Below, in pieces: positions 4,244-33,043 of a stretch of DNA of 61,073 nt (position 1 is its first letter; each line of letters opens with the position of its first letter). The DNA is taken from NCBI GenBank assembly GCA_017450485.1, contig JAFSTN010000046.1:1-61073 (forward strand), given 5' to 3'. This DNA comes from Lachnospiraceae bacterium. GTDB lineage: Bacteria > Bacillota > Clostridia > Lachnospirales > Lachnospiraceae. Position numbers and translations under genes: made by a program. Under the pieces are notes generated by a model. That model was not told the DNA's origin and ran no database searches. It was given only the letters and a program-made list of their open reading frames with translations.

Positions 4244-5161
4244 TCAGTGAAGGGCGTCCATCTTGAAGTCTCTTGCTCCGTCAGGGACAGGAACCAGCGC
4301 GAACAGTTCGTTCATCTTTTTTTCGGCTTCGGCTTTCTCGGCCTCCGATGCGGTTTCGCTTCGGATTATTTCATAGTATTTATGTGTCTTTGATTCTTTG
4401 GTATCAAAAGAGTCAGCTGTGTGGAACTGTACCTCAAATACGAGACCGTCAGAGGTTTCCAGATTGGTGTTGATCCCCTGATAAGAGCTGGTGTCATTGG
4501 CCCAGTAATTCTTGAATTTATACAGCTTATAACCTTTGTTTTCAAACTCTGTCAGTATTTTTTGCGTAACAGTCACATATTCGTCGTCATTTATTATATA
4601 TGTATATCTGAGTGAATCATGGATACCGTTTGCTGCTTCTGCAAAAGATATCTCCTTGTCGGTGGAATCCAGATGGATCTTACGTGCCGTGCTCTCCACT
4701 GATTTGAATCTGAAATCAAGTCCGGTGAGGTATGCCTTGTCTGATTCGAATGATTTGAGAATGGCGGTGATCGCAGGTTCAGCCGATACTGCTCTGTCAT
4801 GCAGCTCCTGTGCAAGCCTGTTGAGTTCGGGATCCTTGGTGTAATCAACCTCCGCGCTTTGCTCCGCCGCAGCCACAGCTGCATCATCGGGAAGCGTCAG
4901 GACCTGTCCGGGATAGATCAGCGAAGGATCGGTGACTGTGTCCGGGTTCAGTTCCTGAATTTCCTTCCAGCGTTCACCGCTTCCCAGAATATCAGCTGCG
5001 ATCCCGTACAGGCAGTCTCCCTCCCGAACCACATATGAATTCGCCGCATTCTCCTGAGCATACGCCGCCATAGATGCAGGCGCGCTTAATGAAAACCCCG
5101 AGATCAGGAGTATGGCGATAAGCATGTACATAAGGTGATTGAACAGTTTTCTTTTTTTCAT
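4244..5161 (-). CDS. Secreted LysM protein with RelA/SpoT-like nucleotidyltransferase fold
   Basis: This 305-residue protein starts with a signal peptide (Lys-rich start, hydrophobic 10-28, likely cut after AYA). A LysM peptidoglycan-binding domain spans 42-91 (YVVREGDCLYGIAADILG...GQVLTLP). The C-terminal part has the order of RelA/SpoT synthetase motifs: FKSVESTARKI (152-162), D182 in HDSLRYT, Y227 in YQGIN and E243 in VFEVQFHT, then SFDTKESKTHKYYE. The same arrangement occurs in phage head-associated and toxin-like RSH domains. Such a fold on an exported wall-binding protein is unexpected for a stringent-response enzyme. Catalytic activity is not shown. Confidence 0.72.
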   Translation of the reverse strand: MKKRKLFNHLMYMLIAILLISGFSLSAPASMAAYAQENAANSYVVREGDCLYGIAADILGSGERWKEIQELNPDTVTDPSLIYPGQVLTLPDDAAVAAAEQSAEVDYTKDPELNRLAQELHDRAVSAEPAITAILKSFESDKAYLTGLDFRFKSVESTARKIHLDSTDKEISFAEAANGIHDSLRYTYIINDDEYVTVTQKILTEFENKGYKLYKFKNYWANDTSSYQGINTNLETSDGLVFEVQFHTADSFDTKESKTHKYYEIIRSETASEAEKAEAEKKMNELFALVPVPDGARDFKMDALH

Positions 5162-5279: not shown

Positions 5280-7091
5280 ATGAAAAAAGACAACAAGATA
5301 ACCCCTGATTCTGACGGCAGACAAAAAAGTATTCCCACCACCCGATTCGGCATACGTGGGAAAATAGATATACTTGTGATCACACTGATAGTGTTCATAT
5401 TCGTGGTAACCATGGAGCTGGCATCCGGACTTCATATGTCACTTGAAGTAACGGCCAACATACAGGGCAATGATATGTTGGGACGGCTGGCAGAGGAGAT
5501 ACTCGATACGGATGATATGACTTATCTGCTCACAAGGGGACTGGAGATATATGAAAGCGTGCCCGAGGAGATAAGACAAAAACGTACATCCGAAGAGTAT
5601 CTTTCTTATTTCGATGAATTGGAAACCCCGGAGTACCTGGCGATACGCAATGAACTGGCACAGATAAGTGATGACAACGGCTACAGGTGGATAGACCTGC
5701 GTGTTATTGACCCGTACACGGATCGTTTCATATTTCTCATGGACACAAACCCGGAAACCGACAGCAGATTTGAGACCGGATATTGGGAAGCCCCTGAAGA
5801 AGGCATCATGACTTATATTGTCGAATTCGGAGACGGGGAAGAGACACCTGATGATCTCGGGCCTGACGCGGGAGGATCTTTAGGTTACCGCCTGAGATCA
5901 ACCATAGATAATATCGTAGCGCTTCGAAGTCTGCAGAATGAACCTTTTGCAACACTTGTACCGCTTTATCATCCCGTTACCGGTGAGGAGATAGGGTATA
6001 TCGGACTGGGGGAGGATATGGCGGATTATTATGAACACCGTCTTGAGTACAGGATCATCTTTATTTCCGTCATGTTCATAATACTCATAATCTGCCTGCT
6101 GATCACACAGCTCGTTGCCCATTATGCTCTTATCAAACCCATAACCCGCCTTTCGCATGCCGCCAGGAACTACGTGAGTGATAAGGATAAATACCAGACG
6201 GGACATTATTTTGAAAATGTCATGATTCCCACTCACGATGAAGTAAAGCTCCTAAGGGATTCCATGAGTATCATGGAGGAGGATATCAACAATTACGTGA
6301 CGGACATAACGGATATGACGGCTGAGAGGGAGCGGGTTGAGGCTGAATTGAATGTCGGATCGCAGATCCAGCTGAGTATGCTTCCCGATAAGCTGGCCGG
6401 ATACCGGGGTGGCGGTAATTTTGATATCAAGGCATCTATGCGTGCTGCCAAGGAAGTCGGAGGTGATCTGTATGACTTCTTCGTCCTCGATGATGATCAT
6501 ATAGCTATCGCCATAGCCGATGTTTCGGGCAAGGGAGTGCCGGCAGCCCTGTTTATGGTGATCATCAAGGTTCTTATAAACGTCGCGGGCCAGTCAGAAC
6601 AGTCTCCTGCAGCGATCCTGAACAGGATAAACAATCAGATATGTGCCAATAACCCGGAGACCATGTTCGTGACCGTATGGCTGTCCGTCTACAGCATCAG
6701 GGAAAGGACCCTCACGTACGTCAACGCAGGTCATGAGTATCCTGCACTTTACAGGGCATCCGATGATGAATTCAGGCTTATAGTGGAGGAGCATGATCCG
6801 GTTGTAGGCTTTATACCTGATATTAAATACAGGGAAAGGACGATCGCTTTTGAACCGGGAGACAAACTGTATCTGTATACGGACGGCATACCCGAGGCTA
6901 CGGCTGAGGACGAGACCATGTACGGCACCGAGCGTATGCTCGAATGTCTGAACGAACACAGAGCCGAGCATGGACATGAGCTTTTGGACGCAGTGATTGA
7001 AAGCGTTGATAAATACGTCGGAGATGCAAAACAGTTTGATGATATGACAAGTGTCATATTTGAAATTGTTGATGATCATGAACAAAACTGA
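5280..7091 (+). CDS. Membrane-bound SpoIIE/RsbU-type PP2C phosphatase (copy 1)
   Basis: This 603-residue protein has transmembrane segments near 29-49 and 258-280 flanking a ~200-residue outside sensor domain. A HAMP-like linker (YALIKPITRLSHAARNYV) and a short coiled coil lead to a PPM phosphatase domain from about 365. Metal-binding motifs are present: GGDLYDF (~394), IADVSGKGVPAALFM and FDDMTSVIFE (~586). Such enzymes dephosphorylate anti-anti-sigma-like partners on an external cue. No anti-sigma or STAS gene is nearby, so the target is unknown. No convincing ribosome site precedes the ATG. It overlaps its paralogue by 14 bp. Confidence 0.87.
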   Translation: MKKDNKITPDSDGRQKSIPTTRFGIRGKIDILVITLIVFIFVVTMELASGLHMSLEVTANIQGNDMLGRLAEEILDTDDMTYLLTRGLEIYESVPEEIRQKRTSEEYLSYFDELETPEYLAIRNELAQISDDNGYRWIDLRVIDPYTDRFIFLMDTNPETDSRFETGYWEAPEEGIMTYIVEFGDGEETPDDLGPDAGGSLGYRLRSTIDNIVALRSLQNEPFATLVPLYHPVTGEEIGYIGLGEDMADYYEHRLEYRIIFISVMFIILIICLLITQLVAHYALIKPITRLSHAARNYVSDKDKYQTGHYFENVMIPTHDEVKLLRDSMSIMEEDINNYVTDITDMTAERERVEAELNVGSQIQLSMLPDKLAGYRGGGNFDIKASMRAAKEVGGDLYDFFVLDDDHIAIAIADVSGKGVPAALFMVIIKVLINVAGQSEQSPAAILNRINNQICANNPETMFVTVWLSVYSIRERTLTYVNAGHEYPALYRASDDEFRLIVEEHDPVVGFIPDIKYRERTIAFEPGDKLYLYTDGIPEATAEDETMYGTERMLECLNEHRAEHGHELLDAVIESVDKYVGDAKQFDDMTSVIFEIVDDHEQN

Positions 7092-8878: not shown

Positions 8879-8956
8879 ATAGACAGAGTAACGGAGCCAT
8901 ATGTGTGATACTTCTGTGATAACCGAAAGGATATAGTGTATTTATGGGAGAGGAAT

Positions 8957-9784
8957 ATGAGACTGACACGAATCGAACAGGAAAACCGTGATTATTTTTC
9001 TTATCTGTGTCCGGATTCTTTATTGAATGATGACGGGCTGTTTAAGCTCGGTGTCATCGATGATGAGGACTACGCATGCAGTATGTGTGTGATCGGTATA
9101 GGGGATTCTCTTGCCCACATACGGTGGATCATGACGGATCCCGGATCGCGGGAAAAGGGCGCGGCCACTTTTTTGATTGATAATGTTTTGGAGCTCCTGA
9201 AGGACACGGGGGTCGACGGAATTGATGTCAGATTCATGTCGTCGGATGAAGACCTGGATGATTTCCTTGAAGAGAGAGGTTTTCTGGTGGATGAAGATAC
9301 CGGGATCTACTCCATCCCGATACCTGATCTGGTATACAGCCGGGAGATGGAGCAGATAGCGGGCAGCATAGGTGCAAGCAGGCATACCAAGCCTTTTCCG
9401 GATGATGATGCGGTACGGGGCAAGCTTATACGTAAACTGTCGGAATCGTTTCAGACGGATCCTTATGTTTTTGACGGTATTTCACCGAAATACAGCGCAA
9501 TATACTATGATACCGGCTCACATCCGTCCGGAGTGATATGTGTGAGTGAATCGGGAGATAAGGATCTGTATGTCAACTATCTTTTCAGTGACGGCGGCAT
9601 AAACTGCATAGGCGAGCTTGCCACGGCTCTGTATGATGCGATCTTACAATCGGGATCCTTACCGGAGAACCTTATATTTACAGACAGGGATGACAGATCG
9701 ATAACACTTATGGAAAGGCTGACCGGCATTGACCGGGATGAATACCGCATACCCGGACATTTGTATGCGCTTATGCTTTTTTAG
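8957..9784 (+). CDS. GNAT-like acetyltransferase
   Basis: About 275 residues from the ATG at 8957, which has GGGAG 6 nt upstream; a GTG at 8936 with AAAGG is the alternative start. The N-terminal ~120 residues have GNAT character: a central strand IRWIMTDPGSREKGAATFLID, which looks like the acetyl-CoA loop (R-x-x-G-x-A), and a C-terminal FLEERGF segment. The remaining ~150 residues may be a second, degenerate GNAT-like half. It lies 30 bp before the giant protein gene and is probably cotranscribed with it. Whether it modifies that protein is unknown. Confidence 0.6.
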   Translation: MRLTRIEQENRDYFSYLCPDSLLNDDGLFKLGVIDDEDYACSMCVIGIGDSLAHIRWIMTDPGSREKGAATFLIDNVLELLKDTGVDGIDVRFMSSDEDLDDFLEERGFLVDEDTGIYSIPIPDLVYSREMEQIAGSIGASRHTKPFPDDDAVRGKLIRKLSESFQTDPYVFDGISPKYSAIYYDTGSHPSGVICVSESGDKDLYVNYLFSDGGINCIGELATALYDAILQSGSLPENLIFTDRDDRSITLMERLTGIDRDEYRIPGHLYALMLF

Positions 9785-9814
9785 TTAACAGGATTGACAA
9801 TTCGGAGGTATGAA

Positions 9815-12800
9815 ATGGGTAAAGGATCAGGAGAACTCGGACAGATACAGAAAACAAAGACATCGGCGGAGATAGTGAAGCCGGTTGATGATCTTATAAT
9901 ACAAAGAACGCATACCGAACCCGATATGATGGCTCAGGGGGCGAATAAGACTTCCTCAAAGAAGCAGGATGCCACCAGGGTCCTTAAGGCGGGGGCGTCT
10001 AAAATACCTGTGGAGGTTCCGAAGAAAAAGAAAGAGGCATCTTCCAAAGCGGAGCAGAAGAATGAACTGGAAAAGACCAAGGAAGAGCTCCGCGCACTTC
10101 ATAAACAGCTGGGCAGCGCGGAGAGTGAGGCTTTTCCGATGGGACATTCGTACGGTAATATCAGCAGGACCCGGTATGAGCGTATGTCTGCTTCCGATAT
10201 AGAGAAACGGGCCAAGAATGCCATTAAACGTAAACATAACGCAAAGGTCATAGAAAAATACGAAAAAGACCATAAGGCGGGGAACCGGTATAAATTCACT
10301 CATATCGACAAGGAAACCCTTGCACGAAATATAGAGACATTTATGCATATGCCGGAAGAACCCTATGAGATGGATACGGATGAGAAATTCCTGGCTAATC
10401 TTGATAAGAATATTGACCTGTGTGACCAGACGGAGCTTATGAAGCACTGGATCGATGAGGCTGCGGAGAAAGGATTTCTTCCGGAGGGGATCGATATGCA
10501 GGCGCTGCAGGCCAAAATAACAGCCTTTGCGGAAGTCAGAAGATATATAGATATCCAGAAGAGTCTTATGAAGAATCCCTATTACCAGTATATGGCCAAG
10601 AAGGATATGTCATATACTGACAGGCAGCTTAAAAGAATCCATGAGACAGCGAAGAACGAAGCCTTAAAGAGCTATCTGTCGAATATTATGGAACTCAGAT
10701 CCCTGCATTTCGTGCGAAGCAAGGGTATGAAATCGGTGTCCGGATATGCCAAAGCAGAGGGACTGCGTCAGACTAAGATCATGAATGAACGCAGTGAGAA
10801 ACGGGCCGTCATCAACAGAATGGCGACATGTGCCATAAACTATGCGGGCAACAGCCGCTTCACCGATAAAAACTATGATGCGAAGTTCAGTCCGGCGGCC
10901 TTTAAGGAGTCATTAAAGAGCTTCAGGGCTATGAATATAAATAACCTGCACTATGGAAGCGTAGCGGATATTGCCACGCATTATGAAGAGAATCAGTATA
11001 TGTTTGACAGAATGCACGAGTTCGAGCATATGCTCTTTATGGCTGTTCAAAACGGACTTGCGCCCTCGGATGATGAGCTTATAGATTTACGAGCCCGCAT
11101 AGAAGCTTTCACCATGGCTGAAAAGATGATCACGTCGGCTCAGTCGAGGCTTCTGGATAAATCCGATGAAATCCTTAAGAATAAAACCTATAAGGAGTTC
11201 TCTCAGGATGTCTACAACCTGGTTTTGAACGATGAGACAAATGTTGAGGGGAAACTCCCTCCCGCCTTCGGATGTGATCTGACCAAATACATGAAGAATA
11301 TCTCCAAACGTATGAAGCGTGAACATCAAAACAGAGAGAAGAGCATACGCGTGATCTATGCCCTTACCCATCCCGTAGAAGCCAAAGAAGTTGTGGACGG
11401 GGTAGAGACAACCGTATTATCAGCCGGAGAGATAACCGGGGAAGAACTGGAACGCAGGATGAGGGAATACCAGAAGAATGCCTGCATTACCGGATATCTG
11501 CATCATACTGAGGATTATCTGAAAAATGTAAACGGTGCAAGACTTGCGTCGATAGCACGAGTACACGCCCGTAAGACGGGAAGAAATGTGTTTACGCAGT
11601 TTGGGTGTTCACTGCTCCCTTACCTCGAAGGCAAATCGGCTGCGGAGGTTACCAAAGTCATAGATATCATGCAGACCGGTACCGATGAGGAGAAGGAGAC
11701 ATTATGGAAATCCATCGCTCAGGAGGCTTTTGATACAGACATAAGCGCACTTGACAGCCGTGACCCTAAGGTTATGCTGAGCAATGCCGCCTACGGACTG
11801 CGTATAAACAAGATCGTCGCCAATCTCTACGGAAGCAGCAACGACTTCTCCAAGTATGTCCGGGACAAGAAACTCTTATCGGAATATGAGGCCAGGTACA
11901 ACAGCGGATGCGATAATTCTTATCTGTCCGCTTACGCTCAGGCATCCGGTGCTTCTGCCAGCGCAGCTTTGATGCATGAGGACTGGTTTGTCAAGGGCGA
12001 TGAAACCATACGTGATTTCCTCGAACTGACCGATAAAACAGGAGTATCGACCAAACATTTGTACATCGGAGACACGGAGTATACTTTTTCGGAAGCTGAA
12101 TTCAAGCGCCTTGAAAGAGTTCCCGAGCGTATTTCGTTTATGACTTCCGTGTCTAAATCCCGGCTTCATAAGGAGAGAGCAAAGAAGGGAATCAGGAATA
12201 CATCCTCAATAGCTTACTTCGAGGAGCTTAAGATGAGTAAGGTGCTTTCTTCGGTTTCGGATGCCGAGCGTAAGGAGATAGCCGGATTTCTGAAAAAGTA
12301 TTCCGGGGAATATGATGCATCAGTGAGGACCATGATCGCCGATATCGAAAAGGAGATAAAGAAGACCGATCCCGGGTTTGTTCCAAAGAACGGCAGCAGA
12401 TATAGGTTTATTGCCGATATGGCGATCCTTGATAAAAAAGGAGATAAGAAAAAAACAGAAAAGAGTACGAGGATATATAATGCCCTGATACGCGACAGGG
12501 ATAAAAATGATCAGGCATCCAGACAGGAGAAGGCGTATGTCCTGGAGGAGATATTTAAAACGATCATGTCATTTGACATAAACCGTTTTGATTATAAGTC
12601 CTATAAGGACATCATATCAAACACCAAGGATGACCCAAACAGATTTGAGGAATGCCGTGCCGTAACAAGACTCGCTATGGAAGCCGTAAACTATATCGGC
12701 ATTTATAAGGAACTGAGGCTTGCTGAGGACGTAAACTGCCGTCTGCTTGACGCGCATATGGCTGAAATAAAGGCCAGATGCGACCTGCTCATGGCTGCGG

Positions 12801-15800
12801 AGAACTACTTCGATGAGAAGTTTATAGATGTATTGGAATCGGATGAGGTTACCGAATCCAAAATGAGCATCGACGATATCCTGCACATGACTCAGACAGA
12901 GATCGATGAGAAGCTGGCTGCCGCAAGAACTTCAAATAATCCCCCAAAGATCAACTTCTGGCTCAACATCAAGGTGCTGACCACGAGTCTTGCCGGTTTT
13001 GATATCAGGATCCCTCTAAAGAACCTTGAGACAAGATTCAGGATGAAGCAGGGGCTTATCGGGGAATCCCGCGTGACTGAGATCGTAAACACCTTGAGCG
13101 GCACGGAAAGCGTTCTTAATGATCTTGAGATAGTTGAGGACACCTTTACCGCTATCAGTGAAAACGAAGTTTTAGCAATGTATGCACCGGGCTTTGCCGA
13201 AAAGGACCTCACTGTATCGGAGCGCGAGGCCAAGCTGTTCAACAAAAAATCCAGACTCTGTACCAAGCGCATTCTTGCGGACAGGATCACAGGGAAGTCC
13301 CGGGCTGTTAAGGACGATATGGCCCGATCCAGACGGGGGATTCTTCTTAAGAACCGGATCGCGGTTGGCGATGAAGCCCTCAGTCATTTGTGTGCATTTA
13401 TGGATCAGGATGAGCAGACGGATAATTATCTGGCCGAAGGCTATGCGGATAAAGAAAAACGTACCGAGGTGATGGATATCCTGACCATGGACATTATGTC
13501 TGTGGATTTAAGCTTCAAAGCATCCACCGATGAGGAATTCGCTGACAATTCGGAGAAGCTTGAGCAGATCAGCCAAAAGGCAATGGCATATGACAGCCTG
13601 TTAAAGGCCAATCCCGAATATACGAAACGACTTATGAACCGAATGCCCGGAAGCACAGAGTCGGATCTGTCCAGGGTAAGAGCACGCCTTGACCGGATGC
13701 TTGCGATATCGGATTATTACAGAGCGCGCAAGACACTTATGTCCGATACCTACTATATCCTTCACTACAACGATGAACTGAGCGCGGATCGAGACATCGC
13801 AACGAACGACGATCAAAGAAGGGTATCCGATCTGATCAGGCTGGTAGCGTTTACCGCACAGAGATTATCCGATGCCGGTCAAGTTCATAGAGAGGATGCG
13901 GGACTTGATCTGCTGCTTAGCCGCGCAGAGCGCATGGGCAGGCAGAATGCCCATCTTACAGGACGTCCGGATCTTAAATCTGTGGATATGGATACCGTAA
14001 ATAAGAACAATGAAGAAATCGCGAGATTCGTGGAGAAGAGCGAAGCGTATCAATGGAGCACAGATGAAATATGCCTCCGGGATGTAAATAACCCATGCCC
14101 CGAGGCACGTAAATACTACACAAAAGCCGTAAAGAACTATTTTGAAGCCGTAAACGCTTATTCGAAGGCAATCCGTGATAAGTACATGCCGGAGCTTCTC
14201 ACACCTGAAAAGCAGGAGTTGCTTGAAGAACTGACCGAACTGATCAAAGGCAAGGATGGGAAAGAAGTAGCAAAGCCCGAATTCAGGGATCCCGTGACGG
14301 GAGAAGTGTTTAAGCTGTCCACCGATATTACGAGAATGCCAATGGAGATCTGCCTAAACTATGCGGGTAACATGTCCAATGAGGAGATCCTGGATATATT
14401 TGAGGGACTTCTTCTGACATACCGTAACGATATAGATATGAATGATGATGCTCAGAGGCTGTATGCGAAGAACAGATTCCTTGATTCCATGGGAAAGCTC
14501 TTCCGTATGGAATATGAGAATATGAAACGGTTTGAGAATACATACGGGACTCTGGGGGATGAGATCCCATTCGGGATGTTCATTCAGTCCATGGGATCCT
14601 GTCAGAAGGACTTTATCTTAAGGAACCGGTTCTCCCAGGACATGGCCAATCTGTGTCACAAGGGAGCAGAGAGTGATTCCGTGTCAGAGGGTAAAACTCT
14701 TACCACTGCGGAACTGCTGGTTAAGTACGGCAGGATCACTCAGGCAGAGATGGAGGATGCGGTGAATTTAGGGCCCGGTTACTATCAGCCTCTTGCTATT
14801 TTCCAGAATACTTATCTGCAGTCCTGCAAACCGTATGCTCCCAACGAAAGCCTGAGAACCAAAGGCGTGGTTGCCAAAACCGACCTTGTGCTTATGCAGT
14901 ATACCAAGGATCACGCAAGCATAAAAGGTCCCAAAGTCTCCCCGTCAGAGGCGCGGAATATGTGGAAGGAGACTCTTAAATACCGGACCGACGAAAATAT
15001 GGACGGAGGGGAAGTATACGCCGGATCCCAGAAAAACAGACTGGATCTGTATACTCCGGCACAGAAGAAGGAACTTAAGGCTCAGAGGAAGAAGGATGTC
15101 AGTATCTTTGAGTTCTATAATTTCCATCTTGACGAACGTGAGAAGGATCTCATGGCGAGGACCAGAAATGCCGTAGGAGATATAGATGATAAGCTGTTAA
15201 AGACTCTTATAGCTTTTCATCCCGCTATGCTTAAGACTGACCATATCACAAAAGACAGCGGAGCGGATGTACCCGGCACCGATGAGTTCTATGAGCTGGT
15301 CAGAAAATATGCCGGCATAGGCGTGGGAAAAGAAAAAAAGGCGATGGCCAGGAAGGAAGCCGCAGAGGGATTGATCAAGCTGTGGGACAGCTTGTTTGTC
15401 GGAGCGAAAGCAGATCTTGACGATATCGATGACCTCATGAACGGCAGGCCCGGGGAGGACAGTGAAAGTCAGGCCAGGGAGAATGCCTCAGAGATCATGG
15501 AAGGGTCGTATCTGCTCATAGAAGAAGTACGACACCGGATGTATGAGAGCCTGAACGATATATCGGCTGATCCGGAGATCAGTAATATGCTTTCCGATAA
15601 ATTTAACAGCCGTGAATTCAAACATCATATAAAACATCAGCTTCGTAATGAGATATACCGTAAGTTGCTTACCAACAAATTCTATCTCGATTTAAAGGAT
15701 GTGGGCTCCAGGAGACGCTCATATCCCGAGAAGATGTATCAGGAGATAAATAAGATCACGGCTCAGCTTTCAGAGCCTGGGAATACTCCGTTTGATCTTG

Positions 15801-18800
15801 ACGGGGCTTTGCAGGAGGAAGAGTTCAGGAACTGTCTTGAATACTTCGGTATAAACATAGCCGGGATACCCGTTTACTCCCAAACCTTTATCGCTGTTCC
15901 CAAGCGGAAGGAGGAAGAGAAACCCGAATCCGCCGGTCGATTGAAAGCCGATGCAATGTTTGCAGAGCAGGAGAAGAAAAATCTCCACTATGAGCTTGAC
16001 CCGATCGAATATCAGGCTAACATCAAGGCTCAGGATAAGGGACCTCATGTTGCATACGAGAAGCAGACCGGCTTATATTGCTGGGCATGTGTGATGAACG
16101 GACTTATGAACTCGTATGCGGGCAAAAAGGTATCCGATCTTAACATGATAAAGAACTACAACCTCCGTATACCTAAATTCGAGGAGTCCGGAATCTCAAA
16201 TAAAGCGGAATATGATGAAGGCGTAGCTCTGACCGGCAATATGTCGACAGGATTGGAAACCGGTAATCCCACTATATTCGGGGATTATATCTTCGAGCAT
16301 CTGGAGAATAAGAAGACAGCCGTAAGGACAGCCGTTGTAGGCAGAGTGGAAGGCAGGCTTGATTATTGCAAGCGTCGTTTCATGGAGACGTTAAGCAAGA
16401 GTCTGGAGAAGGGACCGGTAGGTCTTCTTCTGGGCAATCATTTCGTACTTGTAAGGGAACTGCAGGGTGATGTTTTGAAAGTCAACGACTCATTATCGGA
16501 CAGGCCCGATTCCCTGAAGGACTATGATCAGACCGTATCTCAGCTGTTTGCAAACGTAGGTCAGCAGATAGAGCTTGTATGGCTTGAGGATATGACAGGG
16601 CGCGAGGACGAGATGGCTAAACAGTTTGATTTGAATTACAACGCGCAGGAAGGAGAATTTGCATATAAGAATCAGGGTGATGTGATCGCAGACGCACCCG
16701 GGAAATACAACTACACCCAGGGACATAACAGACAGACCATACTTCATAAAGACGGAATCGAGGCATGTGTCAATCTCTTCGATGATGTGGTATATAACTT
16801 CGTATATCTGCCGAAGAAAACACAGCTGCCTCAGGATGCAGAGAATCCCGTTAACGAAGAGGAGGCCGGTCAGATCCATAAGGAGATAAAAAAGGAGATA
16901 GAAGAGAAGGTAAAACAGGAAATAAAAGAGGAGATAGAAGAGCAGATAAAACAGGAAATAAATGATGAAAAATCCGCAGATCGCTGGGGATTTGACGACA
17001 AACAAAAGACAAAGGCGCTGCTCGACAAAATAAACGCTGTCACAGGTAAACTGGATGATTTTATTATTGAACGGGTGAAAAACAGGGATTTCGCATGGAG
17101 GAATAAACGAGAGCTTGGCGGAACCATTACAAACAGGAAGGCAAGGGCGACCGCATCCTGTCTTGCTTACCTTATGAATTATGATGACGAACAGGCATGG
17201 CAGGTTTACTCCGGGCTTACCCTTGATACGGCGGAAATGACAAAAGATGATAAGAAAAGAAGGATAAGGGCCATAGAGAAACTCTTTGAGTCCATTCTCA
17301 GATTTGACAGTAAAAAGATGAACTTTGATTCATTTAGCGAAGCCTTTTCCGAAAATAAGGTGGAGCTCTCCGCCATGAGTTTTCTCTGTCATGAGTTAGA
17401 CTCTAAATGGATGGACGAATACAAGGAGTACATGAAAGATAAGGAATCGGGCTGTTCCTTAAGCGAAGAACAGTTTAAAGAAGTGTACAACAGGTGGGAC
17501 TTCTTCCAGATCTGCGGAGATGTTTTGCATCGTTATCTGGAAATCTCTGTCATGAAAGGGGTCACCGAAAAGATGGTAACGGATGTCCTGAAGCTTTCAA
17601 GAGCCGAGCTCGAAAAGAAAGCGAACGAAGAAGGGCAAAAACCGGAAACAGCGGAATTATATATCATGGCCCTGAATTTAAAGGGGCGGTTTCAATTCGG
17701 CTTTGACATTGGGGCAGATGCCGGAGAAGTACTGGATAAAATGAGAAAAGACTCCGGGCTTACCAAGGATCATACTCAGGATGCGATAAAGGCTCTTGAG
17801 GAAAGCTTTAAAAATCCGGTTCCGATAGATGATGACGACCGACAGATGAGTGAAGAGGAAAAGAAGCAGGTAATAGAGAAGGAAGAAAGAGAGAAAAATG
17901 TAAAGCTGCTTCAAGCTGAACAGTGGTATGTCATGCCGGATTACGAGGCGCATGCTCTCAAGAAGCAGGTTAAAAGTGAAAGTAAGGTAAAAGAAACAAA
18001 AGTCAAGAATAAGACTGTCAGGATCAATAAGACAAAGAGAAAGGAACAGCTTAAAAACAGGGAGAATACCAAGGGAGACTTTAGAGAGACCAAACTTGAC
18101 GAAACCTATGAAAAAGAGCTTCGCAAGAATCTAAAGACCAAAAAGATCAACTGGGCGGAGGATATGAAGGATCCCGAAGAACTTCGTAAAAAAGCCCTGA
18201 CTGTCATGGATTCCGATCCTGAAGGGTATATTATACGACATGTGCTTGCGACACAGATGAGGGATATCATCGCGAAGTATCCTGATACCAATCCTGACGA
18301 GGTGGAGTCAACCGTAAACGAATACTTAAGACGTCTGGTAGAGAAATCCCAGTACCGCTTCAGGGTAGGCAGTGAGGCAGCCAAGCTTATCTTAAACGGC
18401 AGGTATTTCAGTTCCACCAAAAAAAATGTGGACAGTTATAACACTCTGGTAAAGAAGCAGTACAGCGAGAATACCAAACTGACCGCGCATCAGAGCATCT
18501 CCTTCGGATCTTTGGGAGGCGATACAGCCAAAGAACTGGGCGCTTACGGTGGTCCAAAGGACTTCCTGGCGGCCTACGGCAAAGTATCATTTAAGCTCAA
18601 CAAAGAAAAAATGAAGGGAAGAGTCACCTTCATGGCAGGAAACAGTATGGGTCATACCAAGAAGGACTATCGTCTTCTCGGGAACACGAGCTTCTATGAT
18701 CTAAAACACGGACGCGCTGCATATATAGATAACGAGAACGGCGAGGCACCTGATATCACCTGTTGCGGAGAAAACCTGATGGCGATCTATGAGAGGGCCA

Positions 18801-19186
18801 GACAACTTAAAGAAAACGATTGGAAGGATATGAATTCCGCAGAGCATGAGGCTCCGCACACCATCGTTGATAAACCGAACCAGATTTATTATGAAGCCCA
18901 TTTCCACGGACAGGTGGGAGCCGCTGAGATCGATGAAGCCACCATGGTGATGTCTACCAGAGAAAAAGGACCCAAATGGAATTTCGACAGAGGAGCCACA
19001 TGGAAAGCTACCGTTAAGGATATCAAGAACAATAAAGAAATAAGGGATATGTATGACTTTATCAATATAATCAATGAGAATCCGGAAATCTACGGTCGCC
19101 AGGGCATGGAGGAACTGAAACTGACATTATGGGATTTAAACGGCAATATGGTAAGCTACGATGAACTCAAAGAAATCTTCGGCTGA
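9815..19186 (+). CDS. Giant 3123-residue protein with papain-like site and DUF3626-like C-terminus
   Basis: The ATG at 9815 follows GGAGG by 6 nt. There is no signal peptide or membrane segment. The Lys-rich N-terminus (1-180) leads into long helical regions with a degenerate ~110-130-residue repeat near 185, 340, 908, 1218 and 2486. Residues 2076-2240 look like a papain-type protease: Q2084, C2089 in LYCWACVMNG, H2209 in GNHFVLV and N2224/D2225. A Glu/Lys-rich helix spans about 2350-2385. The last ~220 residues (YGKVSFKLNKEKMKGRVTF at 2921, YYEAHFHGQVG around E3027) recall DUF3626. I know no characterised homologue. Its size, protease site and small downstream genes suggest a large effector or toxin, but no secretion signal or apparatus is visible. 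Confidence 0.8.
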   Translation: MGKGSGELGQIQKTKTSAEIVKPVDDLIIQRTHTEPDMMAQGANKTSSKKQDATRVLKAGASKIPVEVPKKKKEASSKAEQKNELEKTKEELRALHKQLGSAESEAFPMGHSYGNISRTRYERMSASDIEKRAKNAIKRKHNAKVIEKYEKDHKAGNRYKFTHIDKETLARNIETFMHMPEEPYEMDTDEKFLANLDKNIDLCDQTELMKHWIDEAAEKGFLPEGIDMQALQAKITAFAEVRRYIDIQKSLMKNPYYQYMAKKDMSYTDRQLKRIHETAKNEALKSYLSNIMELRSLHFVRSKGMKSVSGYAKAEGLRQTKIMNERSEKRAVINRMATCAINYAGNSRFTDKNYDAKFSPAAFKESLKSFRAMNINNLHYGSVADIATHYEENQYMFDRMHEFEHMLFMAVQNGLAPSDDELIDLRARIEAFTMAEKMITSAQSRLLDKSDEILKNKTYKEFSQDVYNLVLNDETNVEGKLPPAFGCDLTKYMKNISKRMKREHQNREKSIRVIYALTHPVEAKEVVDGVETTVLSAGEITGEELERRMREYQKNACITGYLHHTEDYLKNVNGARLASIARVHARKTGRNVFTQFGCSLLPYLEGKSAAEVTKVIDIMQTGTDEEKETLWKSIAQEAFDTDISALDSRDPKVMLSNAAYGLRINKIVANLYGSSNDFSKYVRDKKLLSEYEARYNSGCDNSYLSAYAQASGASASAALMHEDWFVKGDETIRDFLELTDKTGVSTKHLYIGDTEYTFSEAEFKRLERVPERISFMTSVSKSRLHKERAKKGIRNTSSIAYFEELKMSKVLSSVSDAERKEIAGFLKKYSGEYDASVRTMIADIEKEIKKTDPGFVPKNGSRYRFIADMAILDKKGDKKKTEKSTRIYNALIRDRDKNDQASRQEKAYVLEEIFKTIMSFDINRFDYKSYKDIISNTKDDPNRFEECRAVTRLAMEAVNYIGIYKELRLAEDVNCRLLDAHMAEIKARCDLLMAAENYFDEKFIDVLESDEVTESKMSIDDILHMTQTEIDEKLAAARTSNNPPKINFWLNIKVLTTSLAGFDIRIPLKNLETRFRMKQGLIGESRVTEIVNTLSGTESVLNDLEIVEDTFTAISENEVLAMYAPGFAEKDLTVSEREAKLFNKKSRLCTKRILADRITGKSRAVKDDMARSRRGILLKNRIAVGDEALSHLCAFMDQDEQTDNYLAEGYADKEKRTEVMDILTMDIMSVDLSFKASTDEEFADNSEKLEQISQKAMAYDSLLKANPEYTKRLMNRMPGSTESDLSRVRARLDRMLAISDYYRARKTLMSDTYYILHYNDELSADRDIATNDDQRRVSDLIRLVAFTAQRLSDAGQVHREDAGLDLLLSRAERMGRQNAHLTGRPDLKSVDMDTVNKNNEEIARFVEKSEAYQWSTDEICLRDVNNPCPEARKYYTKAVKNYFEAVNAYSKAIRDKYMPELLTPEKQELLEELTELIKGKDGKEVAKPEFRDPVTGEVFKLSTDITRMPMEICLNYAGNMSNEEILDIFEGLLLTYRNDIDMNDDAQRLYAKNRFLDSMGKLFRMEYENMKRFENTYGTLGDEIPFGMFIQSMGSCQKDFILRNRFSQDMANLCHKGAESDSVSEGKTLTTAELLVKYGRITQAEMEDAVNLGPGYYQPLAIFQNTYLQSCKPYAPNESLRTKGVVAKTDLVLMQYTKDHASIKGPKVSPSEARNMWKETLKYRTDENMDGGEVYAGSQKNRLDLYTPAQKKELKAQRKKDVSIFEFYNFHLDEREKDLMARTRNAVGDIDDKLLKTLIAFHPAMLKTDHITKDSGADVPGTDEFYELVRKYAGIGVGKEKKAMARKEAAEGLIKLWDSLFVGAKADLDDIDDLMNGRPGEDSESQARENASEIMEGSYLLIEEVRHRMYESLNDISADPEISNMLSDKFNSREFKHHIKHQLRNEIYRKLLTNKFYLDLKDVGSRRRSYPEKMYQEINKITAQLSEPGNTPFDLDGALQEEEFRNCLEYFGINIAGIPVYSQTFIAVPKRKEEEKPESAGRLKADAMFAEQEKKNLHYELDPIEYQANIKAQDKGPHVAYEKQTGLYCWACVMNGLMNSYAGKKVSDLNMIKNYNLRIPKFEESGISNKAEYDEGVALTGNMSTGLETGNPTIFGDYIFEHLENKKTAVRTAVVGRVEGRLDYCKRRFMETLSKSLEKGPVGLLLGNHFVLVRELQGDVLKVNDSLSDRPDSLKDYDQTVSQLFANVGQQIELVWLEDMTGREDEMAKQFDLNYNAQEGEFAYKNQGDVIADAPGKYNYTQGHNRQTILHKDGIEACVNLFDDVVYNFVYLPKKTQLPQDAENPVNEEEAGQIHKEIKKEIEEKVKQEIKEEIEEQIKQEINDEKSADRWGFDDKQKTKALLDKINAVTGKLDDFIIERVKNRDFAWRNKRELGGTITNRKARATASCLAYLMNYDDEQAWQVYSGLTLDTAEMTKDDKKRRIRAIEKLFESILRFDSKKMNFDSFSEAFSENKVELSAMSFLCHELDSKWMDEYKEYMKDKESGCSLSEEQFKEVYNRWDFFQICGDVLHRYLEISVMKGVTEKMVTDVLKLSRAELEKKANEEGQKPETAELYIMALNLKGRFQFGFDIGADAGEVLDKMRKDSGLTKDHTQDAIKALEESFKNPVPIDDDDRQMSEEEKKQVIEKEEREKNVKLLQAEQWYVMPDYEAHALKKQVKSESKVKETKVKNKTVRINKTKRKEQLKNRENTKGDFRETKLDETYEKELRKNLKTKKINWAEDMKDPEELRKKALTVMDSDPEGYIIRHVLATQMRDIIAKYPDTNPDEVESTVNEYLRRLVEKSQYRFRVGSEAAKLILNGRYFSSTKKNVDSYNTLVKKQYSENTKLTAHQSISFGSLGGDTAKELGAYGGPKDFLAAYGKVSFKLNKEKMKGRVTFMAGNSMGHTKKDYRLLGNTSFYDLKHGRAAYIDNENGEAPDITCCGENLMAIYERARQLKENDWKDMNSAEHEAPHTIVDKPNQIYYEAHFHGQVGAAEIDEATMVMSTREKGPKWNFDRGATWKATVKDIKNNKEIRDMYDFINIINENPEIYGRQGMEELKLTLWDLNGNMVSYDELKEIFG
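16861..16970 (+). repeat. In-frame direct repeat encoding a Glu/Lys helix in the giant gene
   Basis: Two ~33-bp near-identical units (each containing GAGATAGAAGAG and TAAAACAGGAAATAAA) lie in tandem and encode alternating EI/KE/EE dipeptides. The product is a likely single alpha-helix or coiled coil just after the protease-like domain. It could expand or contract by slippage. Confidence 0.7.
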
Positions 19187-19902: not shown

Positions 19903-19918
19903 TGTTCCATTGTCAATA

Positions 19919-20187
19919 GTACCCACCACCTAAAGGTAGTGGGCTTGTAAAAACAAGCCATATTGACTAGCCTAAGCCTTGAGACAGAGGCTACGTTACC
20001 GGAGAATGTATAGTTACCTGTGGATGTAATACCAAGTCTGCAGCTCTAAGATTAGTGATTAAACAGTCCTGTGGTATAGGGACAGTGTTGCTGATAAAAA
20101 CCTCCGGATAACATTGGCGAAGGTATATTACCACCCTTCGAGGTGAGAATTTAACTGTTAACAGTTTATTAGAAAGGAGAGGCGCAT
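19919..20187 (+). ncRNA. Candidate omega-RNA of IscB
   Basis: The ~270 nt directly before iscB contain no gene but many stems: the left-end hairpin, CTTGT/ACAAG, TAGCCT (19968-19973) with AGGCTA (19988-19993), ATACCA (20029-20034) with TGGTAT (20072-20077), CACC/GGTG at 20132-20145, and the perfect palindrome AACTGTTAACAGTT at 20153-20166. In known OMEGA systems the guide RNA is transcribed from this position, with the guide taken from the flank just upstream of the element end. Here that flank would be roughly 19903-19918. The limits are inferred by position. Confidence 0.65.
19922..19943 (+). repeat. Left-end hairpin of the IscB element
   Basis: CCCACCACC, loop TAAA, GGTAGTGGG, with a C-A mismatch at pair six. 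A second stem (CTTGT-AAAA-ACAAG, 19944-19957) follows. Both are enclosed by GTCAATA (19912-19918) pairing with TATTGAC (19961-19967). Confidence 0.65.
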
Positions 20188-21486
20188 ATGGTTTATGTGC
20201 TAAGTGAAAACGGACAACCACTTATGCCTACAGGGAACCATGCTAAAGTGCGTATGCTCCTAAAGTCCGGAAGGGCTGTAGTTGTAAAAAGATGTCCGTT
20301 TACGATTAAGTTACTGTATAAGAGTACGACTTATACACAGAAGATTACATTGGGTGTGGATGCCGGAAGTAAGCATGTCGGGTTATCCGCAACTACTGAG
20401 AATAAAGTGCTTTACGAAGCCGATGTGGAACTGAGGAACGATGTAGTGGATCTTTTGTCCGCAAGACGTGAACTCAGACGGTCACGGCGTAACCGCAAAA
20501 CACGTTACAGAGCAGCGAGATTTAACAATCGCAGACGTAAAGACGGATGGTTAGCACCATCGGTACAGAACAAGGTTGACAGTCATCTGACATTGGTACG
20601 AAAAGTACATGAGATACTTCCTATAACAAAAGTTGTCGTGGAAGTTGCAGCTTTCGACATACAGAAGATAAAGGCCGACATGGAAGATCTTAAACATTTG
20701 GAAGGTACTGATTATCAGCATGGTGTACAGATGGGCTTCTGGAATGTCAGGGAATATGTATTGTTCCGTGACGGTCACAAGTGTCAGTGCTGCAAGGGTA
20801 AGTCAAAGGATCCTGTACTTAATGTACATCACATCGAGAGTCGGAAGGTCGGTGGTAATGCCCCGAATAACCTGGTTACTCTGTGCGAAACATGTCATAA
20901 AGGTTATCATAGTGGAGCTGTTAAGCTCCCGAAGAGTATTAGACGAGGCATGAGCTTTAGGGATGTGACATTCATGGGAATCATGAGGTGGGCATTTTAC
21001 AATACTCTGAAGGAACAGTATCCGGATGTGAGTCTTACCTATGGCTACATCACGAAGAATGTTCGTATCGAGAACGGTTTGTCTGTTAAAGAGGCTGAAC
21101 ATGATTCCAGTAAGAAGACTTATCTTTTGAACCATGTGATTGATGCCAGGTGCATCAGCGGTAATCCGAAATCTGTATCTGACGGAACTGTGTATTATAT
21201 GCGAAAAGTCAGATGTCACAACAGACAGATTCACAAGTCTAAAGTCCTTAAAGGTGGCATCCGAAAGAGAAATCAGGCTGATTACTTTGTCAAAGGATTC
21301 AGACTCTTTGATACCGTGCAATATAAGGGCAACTTATACTTTATCATGGGTAGAAGATCAAGCGGATTCTTTGATATAAGGGTACTTGACGGCACTAAAG
21401 TTAACAAGGGTAGTATCAGCTATAGAAAGCTTTTGCTGGTATCTACACCTTCTAAATATCTTACAGAAAGAAAGGTAATGGCATAG
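20188..21486 (+). CDS. iscB: IscB RNA-guided endonuclease (RuvC-HNH, Cas9 ancestor family)
   Basis: This 432-residue protein is a normal IscB length. It has the PLMP domain (GQPLMPTGNHAKVR, residues 9-22), RuvC-I with D58 (LGVDAGSKHVGLS), an Arg-rich bridge helix (92-118), RuvC-II with E152 (VVVEVAAFD), and an HNH domain (CQCC at 199-202, H214/H215, N227/N228, CETCH at 233-237). RuvC-III has H316 and D319 (NHVIDARCIS), followed by a C-terminal TAM-interacting-like region. All expected catalytic residues are present, so the nuclease should be active. GAAAGGAG precedes the ATG. It belongs to the flanked element described separately. Confidence 0.95.
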   Translation: MVYVLSENGQPLMPTGNHAKVRMLLKSGRAVVVKRCPFTIKLLYKSTTYTQKITLGVDAGSKHVGLSATTENKVLYEADVELRNDVVDLLSARRELRRSRRNRKTRYRAARFNNRRRKDGWLAPSVQNKVDSHLTLVRKVHEILPITKVVVEVAAFDIQKIKADMEDLKHLEGTDYQHGVQMGFWNVREYVLFRDGHKCQCCKGKSKDPVLNVHHIESRKVGGNAPNNLVTLCETCHKGYHSGAVKLPKSIRRGMSFRDVTFMGIMRWAFYNTLKEQYPDVSLTYGYITKNVRIENGLSVKEAEHDSSKKTYLLNHVIDARCISGNPKSVSDGTVYYMRKVRCHNRQIHKSKVLKGGIRKRNQADYFVKGFRLFDTVQYKGNLYFIMGRRSSGFFDIRVLDGTKVNKGSISYRKLLLVSTPSKYLTERKVMA

Positions 21487-32704: not shown

Positions 32705-32950
32705 TGGATCATAGGTGCCTGTGGTGCCGAAACGTGAACCGGATCATTCTCGTCGGTTTACGGGCAGGCATACAACAGGGTAAAAGGGAAACAGGTCAGA
32801 TGCCTGTGCGATCCCGTCACTGTAGGAGAGGAGCACATGATCATCGCGGATAGCCGGAGTGCCGTCCGCAGTCACTGAAGCACACTTAATAGCTTTGGGA
32901 AGGCGGTCATGCGTGTAGATACTCAAGCCAGGAAACCTGCCTATCATCCG
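32705..32950 (+). promoter_or_regulatory. Cobalamin riboswitch
   Basis: The ~500 bp after the ZIP gene hold no gene but a clear B12 aptamer: AGGTGCC at 32713, AAAAGGGAA, then GATCCCGTCACTGTA, then GTCACTGAAG, TTTGGGAAGGCGG and finally the B12 box AGCCAGGAAACCTGCC ending about 32943. It precedes a DUF4430 protein and an ECF S component, so it should sense adenosyl- or methylcobalamin and shut off vitamin uptake. Confidence 0.92.
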
Positions 32951-33043
32951 GTACACATAGATCACGCGGATTTGATCGTGCCGTTTATTGAGGAAGCTGG
33001 AAGCCGGCCTGATCGGTTTTCGTGCAGCCTTTGATTTGTGTGT

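What the first reader, a model, noticed from the sequence alone, without database searches (positions are those of the whole stretch)
9815..19186. A 3123-residue uncharacterised protein with a papain-like site and a DUF3626-like end
One 9.4-kb gene encodes a cytoplasm-type protein of exceptional size. It has a Q/C/H/N arrangement (Q2084, C2089, H2209, N2224) typical of papain-fold proteases and a C-terminal region (Y2921, E3027) recalling DUF3626. Long helical repeats surround them. This is the best candidate here for an undescribed system, perhaps a giant effector processed by its own protease.
Basis: partly seen in the sequence, partly recalled or inferred. Interest (0 to 1): 0.82.

Follow-up and report, generated by a model that had tools for sequence, protein, structure and literature searches.

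The report
Giant candidate contractile-injection cargo protein
A Lachnospiraceae bacterium's 3,123-residue protein belongs to a family of giant, mix-and-match proteins that carry a protease-like domain, often sit beside an acetyltransferase-like partner gene, and are probably cargo of the cell's own phage-tail-like injection machine.

Summary
The gene is real: ATG at 9815 after a good ribosome site, 3123 residues, no significant relative in Pfam, NCBIfam or PDB as a whole. The papain claim holds with one correction: Cys2089 and His2209 are invariant in 13 of 13 aligned modules, but the third residue is Asp2225, not Asn2224; the model has a papain fold. No sequence test supports DUF3626, and the C-terminal model failed.

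It is one of a modular family: shared core, shuffled modules, last ~420 residues private to its orthologues. It follows a double-GNAT gene; such genes often neighbour giants, in either order. GNAT genes co-occur and co-localise with a contractile injection system (CIS), which this genome also encodes; they abut its AAA+ gene in three other genera, and a papain giant abuts CIS13 in G202. I read it as CIS cargo with a dedicated GNAT partner; delivery, toxicity and self-cleavage are inferred. One relative (G079) lacks both.

The parts
5280..7091 (+). SpoIIE-type phosphatase gene 1 (possible regulation, same-strand run with the next genes)
   Evidence: SpoIIE PF07228 E 2.9e-51; SpoIIE genes also near GNAT/giant genes in L071, L068, L133
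7051..8862 (+). HAMP-SpoIIE phosphatase gene 2
   Evidence: PF07228 E 6.9e-47, HAMP 8.9e-6
8936..9784 (+). double-GNAT partner gene (282 aa)
   Evidence: Acetyltransf_1 PF00583 E 3.4e-5; 18-row family alignment A2; 53 non-identical full-length members in the loci
9804..9808 (+). ribosome-binding site GGAGG, 6 nt before the ATG
   Evidence: sequence
9815..19186 (+). giant protein, 3123 aa, 359 kDa; no hydrophobic leader by inspection (no predictor run)
9815..10114 (+). hydrophilic N-terminal leader (residues 1-100) with two I-Q-[K/R]-T-x-T motifs
   Evidence: sequence; N-termini of 40 candidate cargo proteins more polar than internal windows (0.70 vs 0.61); motif in 8 of 40 vs 13 of 775 internal windows
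10115..15904 (+). shared core, residues 101-2030
   Evidence: jackhmmer segments n1, n2, h1, c1, c2
12452..13204 (+). repeat module copy 1, residues 880-1130
   Evidence: homologous to residues ~2460-2690
15950..16849 (+). papain-fold module, residues 2046-2345
   Evidence: A1/A5, model m37566001e134, VIA-align
16079..16081 (+). catalytic Cys2089 codon
   Evidence: invariant, 13 of 13
16439..16441 (+). catalytic His2209 codon
   Evidence: invariant, 13 of 13
16487..16489 (+). probable third catalytic residue Asp2225 codon
   Evidence: at least 90% conserved in A5; Asn in L030
17012..17914 (+). repeat module copy 2, residues 2400-2700
   Evidence: follows the papain module also in L031 and L036
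17915..19183 (+). orthologue-private C-terminal region, residues 2701-3123 (candidate payload, fold unknown)
   Evidence: found only in the window and two orthologues (L003, the same contig as L037, and L004) among the loci searched; nothing beyond chance-level pieces in 392 order and 398 phylum genomes (overlapping draws), plasmids, phages, viral contigs

Best explanation
P0001 is a giant cargo effector of the contractile injection system (CIS, eCIS-like) that its own bacterium encodes. Proposed working: (1) SpoIIE/STAS-type partner switching turns the system on (inferred from gene neighbours); (2) the hydrophilic N-terminus is the loading tag and the double-GNAT protein encoded just upstream is a dedicated partner that recognises the giant and hands it to the CIS AAA+ ATPase, by binding and perhaps by acetylating it (inferred); (3) the protein is loaded and injected (inferred); (4) in the target cell the papain-fold enzyme (residues 2046-2345) and the private C-terminal region act, the papain site either as payload enzyme or by cutting the chain (inferred). 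Shown here: the modular family, the conserved Cys-His-Asp site with a papain fold, the frequent GNAT pairing, the presence of a CIS in the genome, and the statistical and physical link of GNAT genes (and in G202 of a papain giant) to CIS genes.
For: Modularity: a core shared by a large family, the papain module also in proteins without that core (L133, L071, L030:329), C-terminus private. GNAT pairing: of 53 non-identical double-GNAT genes, 40 had a complete same-strand non-GNAT next gene; 18 of 40 of these are >=900 aa against 38 of 457 background pairs from the same loci, p 1e-8; pairing occurs in either gene order (L025, L033 versus the window); GNAT and partner identities correlate, r 0.63, Mantel p 0.024, 8 gene pairs. 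CIS: CIS13 matches in 7 of 7 genomes of the genus (best 92.6 bits, below the curated cut-off of 370); own contig C21 holds sheath (PF04984 1.5e-17), inner tube (TIGR02241 5.9e-30), VgrG-type spike, two baseplate proteins, STAS and an AAA+ ATPase. Co-occurrence in 200 family genomes: CIS13 in 6 of 7 double-GNAT genomes against 16 of 193 others, p 5.9e-6. Co-localisation: 17 of 39 listed GNAT matches in five genomes lie on the CIS13 contig, 4.8 expected, p 2.9e-7, own genome 0 of 4 included. A GNAT gene abuts the CIS AAA+ gene in G129, G180 and G006, 3 of the 5 AAA+ genes seen. In G202 a GNAT, a second GNAT-like gene and a 1926-aa papain-module giant run straight into the CIS13 gene, 135 bases on (L071). 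N-termini are hydrophilic, as published for eCIS loading tags (PMC11297309 passages).
Against: Loading was not shown. In the window's own genome none of 4 GNAT matches is on the CIS contig C21; CIS13 lies about 300 bases from that contig's end, so what follows it is unseen. G079 (99% complete) has a papain+repeat giant (L036) with no double-GNAT match; its one CIS13 match looks like a flagellar gene and the giant's upstream neighbour is a SpoU methylase. Relatives with no GNAT directly beside them: L026:4662-12650 (a GNAT is three genes on), L028, L036, L034:6604-9930 (beside another giant), and L030:329-2677 on the side in view. Sixteen CIS13 genomes of the 200 have no double-GNAT, so the pair belongs to only some of these CIS. 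G023 has a GNAT next to a giant but no CIS13 (60% complete). Two of the seven GNAT genomes are of one genus; counted once the association has p 7.5e-5 (with the two false CIS13 still in). Neighbour loci were chosen around giants, GNATs or CIS, so the background is not random genome.
Confidence: 0.6

Rival explanations
1. The GNAT-giant pairs are a polymorphic conflict system of their own, unrelated in mechanism to the CIS, which merely accumulates in the same genomic islands.
For: G079 has a giant and G023 a GNAT with a giant without CIS13; 16 CIS13 genomes lack the double-GNAT; own CIS is on another contig than the 4 own GNAT matches.
Against: GNAT genes next to the CIS AAA+ ATPase in three genera; a papain giant next to CIS13 in G202; co-occurrence p 5.9e-6.
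Confidence: 0.2
2. The giants are internal (cytoplasmic) proteins, for example scaffolds or regulators of CIS assembly or release, with the papain-fold enzyme acting on the producer's own proteins.
For: No hydrophobic leader by inspection, helix-rich architecture; SpoIIE and two-component genes near them.
Against: Many copies with private C-termini and module shuffling fit cargo better than a scaffold; other large GNAT-linked proteins carry different enzyme-like domains (ABC1 kinase in L134, APH-like in L076, calpain C2 in L032).
Confidence: 0.12
3. Type VII (EssC, LXG-type) secretion cargo.
For: Host family of Firmicutes, where such cargo is common (recalled).
Against: EssC above the curated cut-off in only 1 of 7 genus genomes (G202), while giants match in 7 of 7.
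Confidence: 0.03
4. A giant self-cleaving protease whose products act separately, independent of how it is delivered.
For: Internal papain-fold module with complete Cys-His-Asp and ~780 residues behind it.
Against: The same module is the last domain in L025 and L030:329, where little would be released; weak, non-significant hints point to other thiol enzymes too (Peptidase_C70 in 2 of 13, best E 0.002; ORF169b chains, E 0.09).
Confidence: 0.25

Closest known systems
Extracellular contractile injection systems (PVC/Afp) with AAA+-loaded cargo (PMC11495950 abstract and outline; PMC11297309 passages)
   Same: Contractile tail genes, an AAA+ ATPase, cargo with hydrophilic N-termini; very large cargo is known (Afp18 size recalled)
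   Different: Cargo is often paired with a double-GNAT gene, lies in many copies around the chromosome, and shares a ~2000-residue core; loading not shown. eCIS toxins of other Firmicutes, including a Ruminiclostridium, are in print (PMC8213781 passages)
Papain-like cysteine peptidases (C39-like, C70, staphopain, Mac-1/IdeS folds)
   Different: No Pfam peptidase family is reached by the window's module; activity unknown
Polymorphic toxin systems (PMC3482391, passages)
   Same: Shared N-terminal part, private C-terminal ends, papain-like modules inside and at the ends of the chain
   Different: No immunity gene recognised downstream; C-terminal domain unidentified
DUF3626 (PF12294) proteins, including the effector SopF (PMC6682159, passages)
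   Same: Only a short look-alike stretch around E3027-HG by eye
   Different: No profile, profile-profile or shuffled-alignment support

Membership tests
Papain-like cysteine peptidase fold | Conserved catalytic Cys, His and Asp/Asn in order | tested here: met
   Cys and His 13 of 13, Asp at least 90%; D2225, not N2224
Papain-like cysteine peptidase fold | Papain-type fold | tested here: met
Papain-like cysteine peptidase fold | Membership of a named peptidase family (Pfam) | tested here: not met
   Window module: 0 families at E<=1; C70 in 2 of 13 members at best E 0.002
Papain-like cysteine peptidase fold | Proteolytic activity, self-cleavage | not testable with these tools
   Needs biochemistry
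DUF3626 (PF12294) | Profile match | tested here: not met
   No match of the window's gene in G000 at E<=10; the only G000 match, E 0.28, is on contig C27; slice scan
DUF3626 (PF12294) | Profile-profile or pairwise similarity to bona fide members | tested here: not met
   hhalign probability 0.1% over 48 columns; 138, 237 and 29 of 500 shuffles score as well as the real region against three members, and the region is not among the 11 profile hits shown, all shuffles
DUF3626 (PF12294) | Shared fold | tested here: inconclusive
   C-terminal model failed, mean pLDDT 36.7; no fold search was run on it
CIS/eCIS cargo effector | CIS encoded in the same genome | tested here: met
   G000 contig C21
CIS/eCIS cargo effector | Gene family physically linked to CIS genes | tested here: met
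   GNAT partner abuts the AAA+ gene in G129, G180, G006 (3 of 5 seen); papain giant abuts CIS13 in G202; 17 of 39 GNAT matches on CIS13 contigs. Not seen in the window or its genome (0 of 4)
CIS/eCIS cargo effector | Hydrophilic N-terminal loading signal | tested here: inconclusive
   Composition fits; the published classifier was not run
CIS/eCIS cargo effector | Loaded into particles and injected | not testable with these tools
   Needs purified particles
Type VII LXG-type cargo | EssC in the genome | tested here: not met
   Only a partial match in a 926-aa frame in G000 (E 5e-34, below cut-off); above cut-off in 1 of 7
Polymorphic toxin | Shared N-terminal part with exchangeable C-terminal part | tested here: met
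Polymorphic toxin | Cognate immunity gene | tested here: inconclusive
   Next genes are short ORFs and IscB; none recognised

The most novel reading that the evidence does not exclude
Lachnospiraceae use a contractile injection system whose giant cargo is licensed by dedicated double-GNAT partners: each GNAT recognises, and may acetylate, the lysine-rich N-terminal tag of its own giant before AAA+-driven loading, a cargo-selection step not described for other CIS in what I read.
Probability: 0.25. Interest if true: 0.85.

Novelty: new variant of a known kind. Interest (0 to 1): 0.7.

Why it matters
If right, some Lachnospiraceae carry an injection machine with a large, exchangeable arsenal of giant proteins, and a partner enzyme that could control loading. 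It would give a handle on whom these bacteria target (protozoa, fungi, host cells or other bacteria; not known) and a simple marker, the double-GNAT gene, for finding such cargo, much of which has no recognisable domain.

Tried and rejected
DUF3626: tested by PF12294 in 61 relatives and 398 phylum genomes (3 of 398 have bona fide members, used for comparison), by hhalign and by shuffled alignments: no support. More relatives of the C-terminal region were sought in plasmids, phages, viral contigs, 392 order and 398 phylum genomes: chance-level pieces only; the one followed (G206, E 1.3e-4) looks like a flagellar cap protein (recognised by eye); 13 others at E 0.0025-0.1 were not followed. Foldseek gave no match at E<=0.001 for the long model. 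Type VII secretion tested and set aside. The CIS13 matches of G079 and G128 were dropped after reading the genes around them (flagellar or unrelated by eye; own sheath and AAA+ queries find nothing there); the other 22 were not read one by one beyond the loci named. A co-localisation variant with hand-counted 'long' matches is not used, because its counts were wrong; one search gave 17 of 35 without the own genome. Papers: searches (lists capped at 10-20 rows) showed no paper on CIS cargo with a GNAT partner, and on CIS with Lachnospiraceae only PMC10266427 (listing only); the library is incomplete. Read as passages: PMC12419801, PMC3482391, PMC6682159, PMC8213781, PMC11297309; PMC12210884 had none of the terms (85); PMC11495950 abstract and outline.

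Full report
The gene. Window 9815-19186 (+) is one uninterrupted frame of 3123 codons, with GGAGG six bases before the ATG. The whole protein has no Pfam match at E<=1, one chance-level NCBIfam match (E 0.076) and one chance-level PDB match. The window is contig C31 of a 2.6-Mb, 91% complete genome; two near-identical relatives (96-97% over the last third) are in uncultured Lachnospiraceae MAGs, one of them labelled red deer.

A family, not a singleton. With the first 2000 residues as query, 7 of 7 genomes of the genus have relatives, and one (G200, 7% contamination) gives 18 matches on 9 contigs, two of which look like the same locus twice. In the family at large the last 1123 residues match in 4 of 200 genomes: the window's own, G079 (165 bits) and two weak ones, G180 and G130. 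Iterative local searches divide the protein into: a core (101-2030) with internal repeats (residues ~880-1130 resemble ~2460-2690; ~100-280 resemble ~1190-1340), the papain-fold module (2046-2345), the second repeat copy, and residues 2701-3123, which among the loci searched occur only in the window's orthologues. The papain module also occurs in proteins in which no other shared segment was found (L133 in the window's own genome, L071, L030:329), so modules are exchanged.

The C-terminal region. DUF3626 is not supported: see membership test. The model of residues 2787-3123 failed (mean pLDDT 36.7, three near-identical rows), so its fold is open.

The partner. Directly upstream (30 bases before the ATG) is a 282-aa GNAT gene (PF00583 E 3.4e-5). 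Its family (A2, 18 rows) consists of proteins of about 280 aa, roughly two GNAT lengths; 53 non-identical full-length members were found in the loci held (L040, L074 and L123 dropped as duplicate or tiny; near-identical orthologues such as L042 count). Where the next gene downstream is complete, on the same strand and not itself a GNAT (40 cases), its median length is 796.5 aa against 311 aa in 457 background pairs from the same loci; 18 of 40 against 38 of 457 reach 900 aa (p 1e-8). In several loci the large gene lies upstream of the GNAT instead (L025, L033, L068, L070, L071). Five loci fetched later (L146-L150, not in these counts) also show large genes beside GNATs. GNAT and giant N-terminal identities correlate over eight gene pairs (r 0.63, Mantel p 0.024). 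Relatives without a GNAT directly beside them: L026:4662-12650, L028, L036, L034:6604-9930, and L030:329-2677 on the side in view.

The injection system. A gene near GNATs in G041 matches CIS13 (E 2.5e-25). In G202 the corresponding gene (L071:16108-17961; CIS13 at G202:C4:136128) lies 135 bases after a 1926-aa giant with the papain module, itself preceded by two GNAT-type genes. CIS13 matches are found in 7 of 7 genus genomes, all below the curated cut-off. On the window genome's contig C21 the locus contains a tail sheath, inner tube, VgrG-type spike, two baseplate proteins, a STAS protein, an FtsE-like ATPase and an 809-aa AAA+ ATPase. Homologues of that ATPase were sought in 16 loci and found in own, G202, G129, G180 and G006; in the last three the gene is directly next to a GNAT gene (gaps of 20 and 20 bases, and an overlap of about 50). 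Over the 200 family genomes, CIS13 was listed in 24; two were dropped on inspection (G079, G128), leaving 22. Seven genomes have a GNAT match spanning at least 200 of 282 model positions among the rows listed (G000, G041, G180, G080, G129, G006, G023, list cut at the weak end); 6 of 7 have CIS13, against 16 of 193 others (p 5.9e-6; counting the window's genus once, p 7.5e-5 with the 24). G006 (small contigs: CIS13 on C22, GNAT with baseplate and AAA+ genes on C23) adds 0 of 2 by this definition and leaves p at 5e-7 if its share is set to 0.05. EssC of type VII secretion exceeds its cut-off in 1 of 7.

N-termini. Forty candidate cargo proteins, chosen by me and read from the first possible start codon, have more polar first 60 residues than their interiors (0.70 versus 0.61, sd 0.06) and a motif of the type I-K-K-T-x-T in 8 of 40 first-80 windows against 13 of 775 internal windows and 12 of 667 other proteins; the motif was picked by eye from these same N-termini, and related proteins count repeatedly. 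Published eCIS loading tags are described as very hydrophilic and disordered (PMC11297309 passages), and the AAA ATPase Pvc15 loads cargo by such tags (PMC11495950 abstract).

Judgement. The finding is real and better than stated in one way (a partner-linked family with a candidate delivery machine) and worse in another (no DUF3626 support, one wrong catalytic residue). The delivery reading rests on genome context; the counter-example G079, where the neighbour of the giant is a SpoU methylase and no CIS was found by the CIS13 search, keeps the confidence at 0.6.

Noticed in passing
window 19912-21486: IscB RNA-guided nuclease gene (NF040563 E 2.5e-104) preceded by a HEARO RNA (RF02033, 134.9 bits, 19912-20131), just downstream of the giant gene.
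   Followed up: partly
window 4244-5161 (-): LysM domain with a RelA_SpoT match below its cut-off in one 305-aa protein.
   Followed up: no
window 32745-32958: Cobalamin riboswitch.
   Followed up: no
L134:11347-18750 (own genome), L076:3739-10599, L079:8982-13223: Other GNAT-linked giants with kinase-like matches: ABC1 (E 1.7e-14), APH (1e-4, just below cut-off), HipA_C (0.009, weak).
   Followed up: partly
L032:3-3227: Calpain (Peptidase_C2, E 1e-20) protein, cut by the stretch, next to a GNAT and a 3483-aa giant.
   Followed up: no
L036:5885-11830 (G079): Papain plus repeat giant in a 99% complete genome without a true CIS13 or double-GNAT match; upstream gene is a SpoU methylase.
   Followed up: partly
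L029:2740-4503, L031:15070-16832, L068:9831-11566: Pairs of proteins of ~229 and ~350 aa (probably membrane proteins by eye) next to a GNAT in several loci; the four scanned reach no Pfam family; possible further part of the system.
   Followed up: no
L067:12972-15377: 801-aa protein with a TIR-like start (Thoeris ThcB4 E 2e-6, below cut-off) near two GNAT genes.
   Followed up: no
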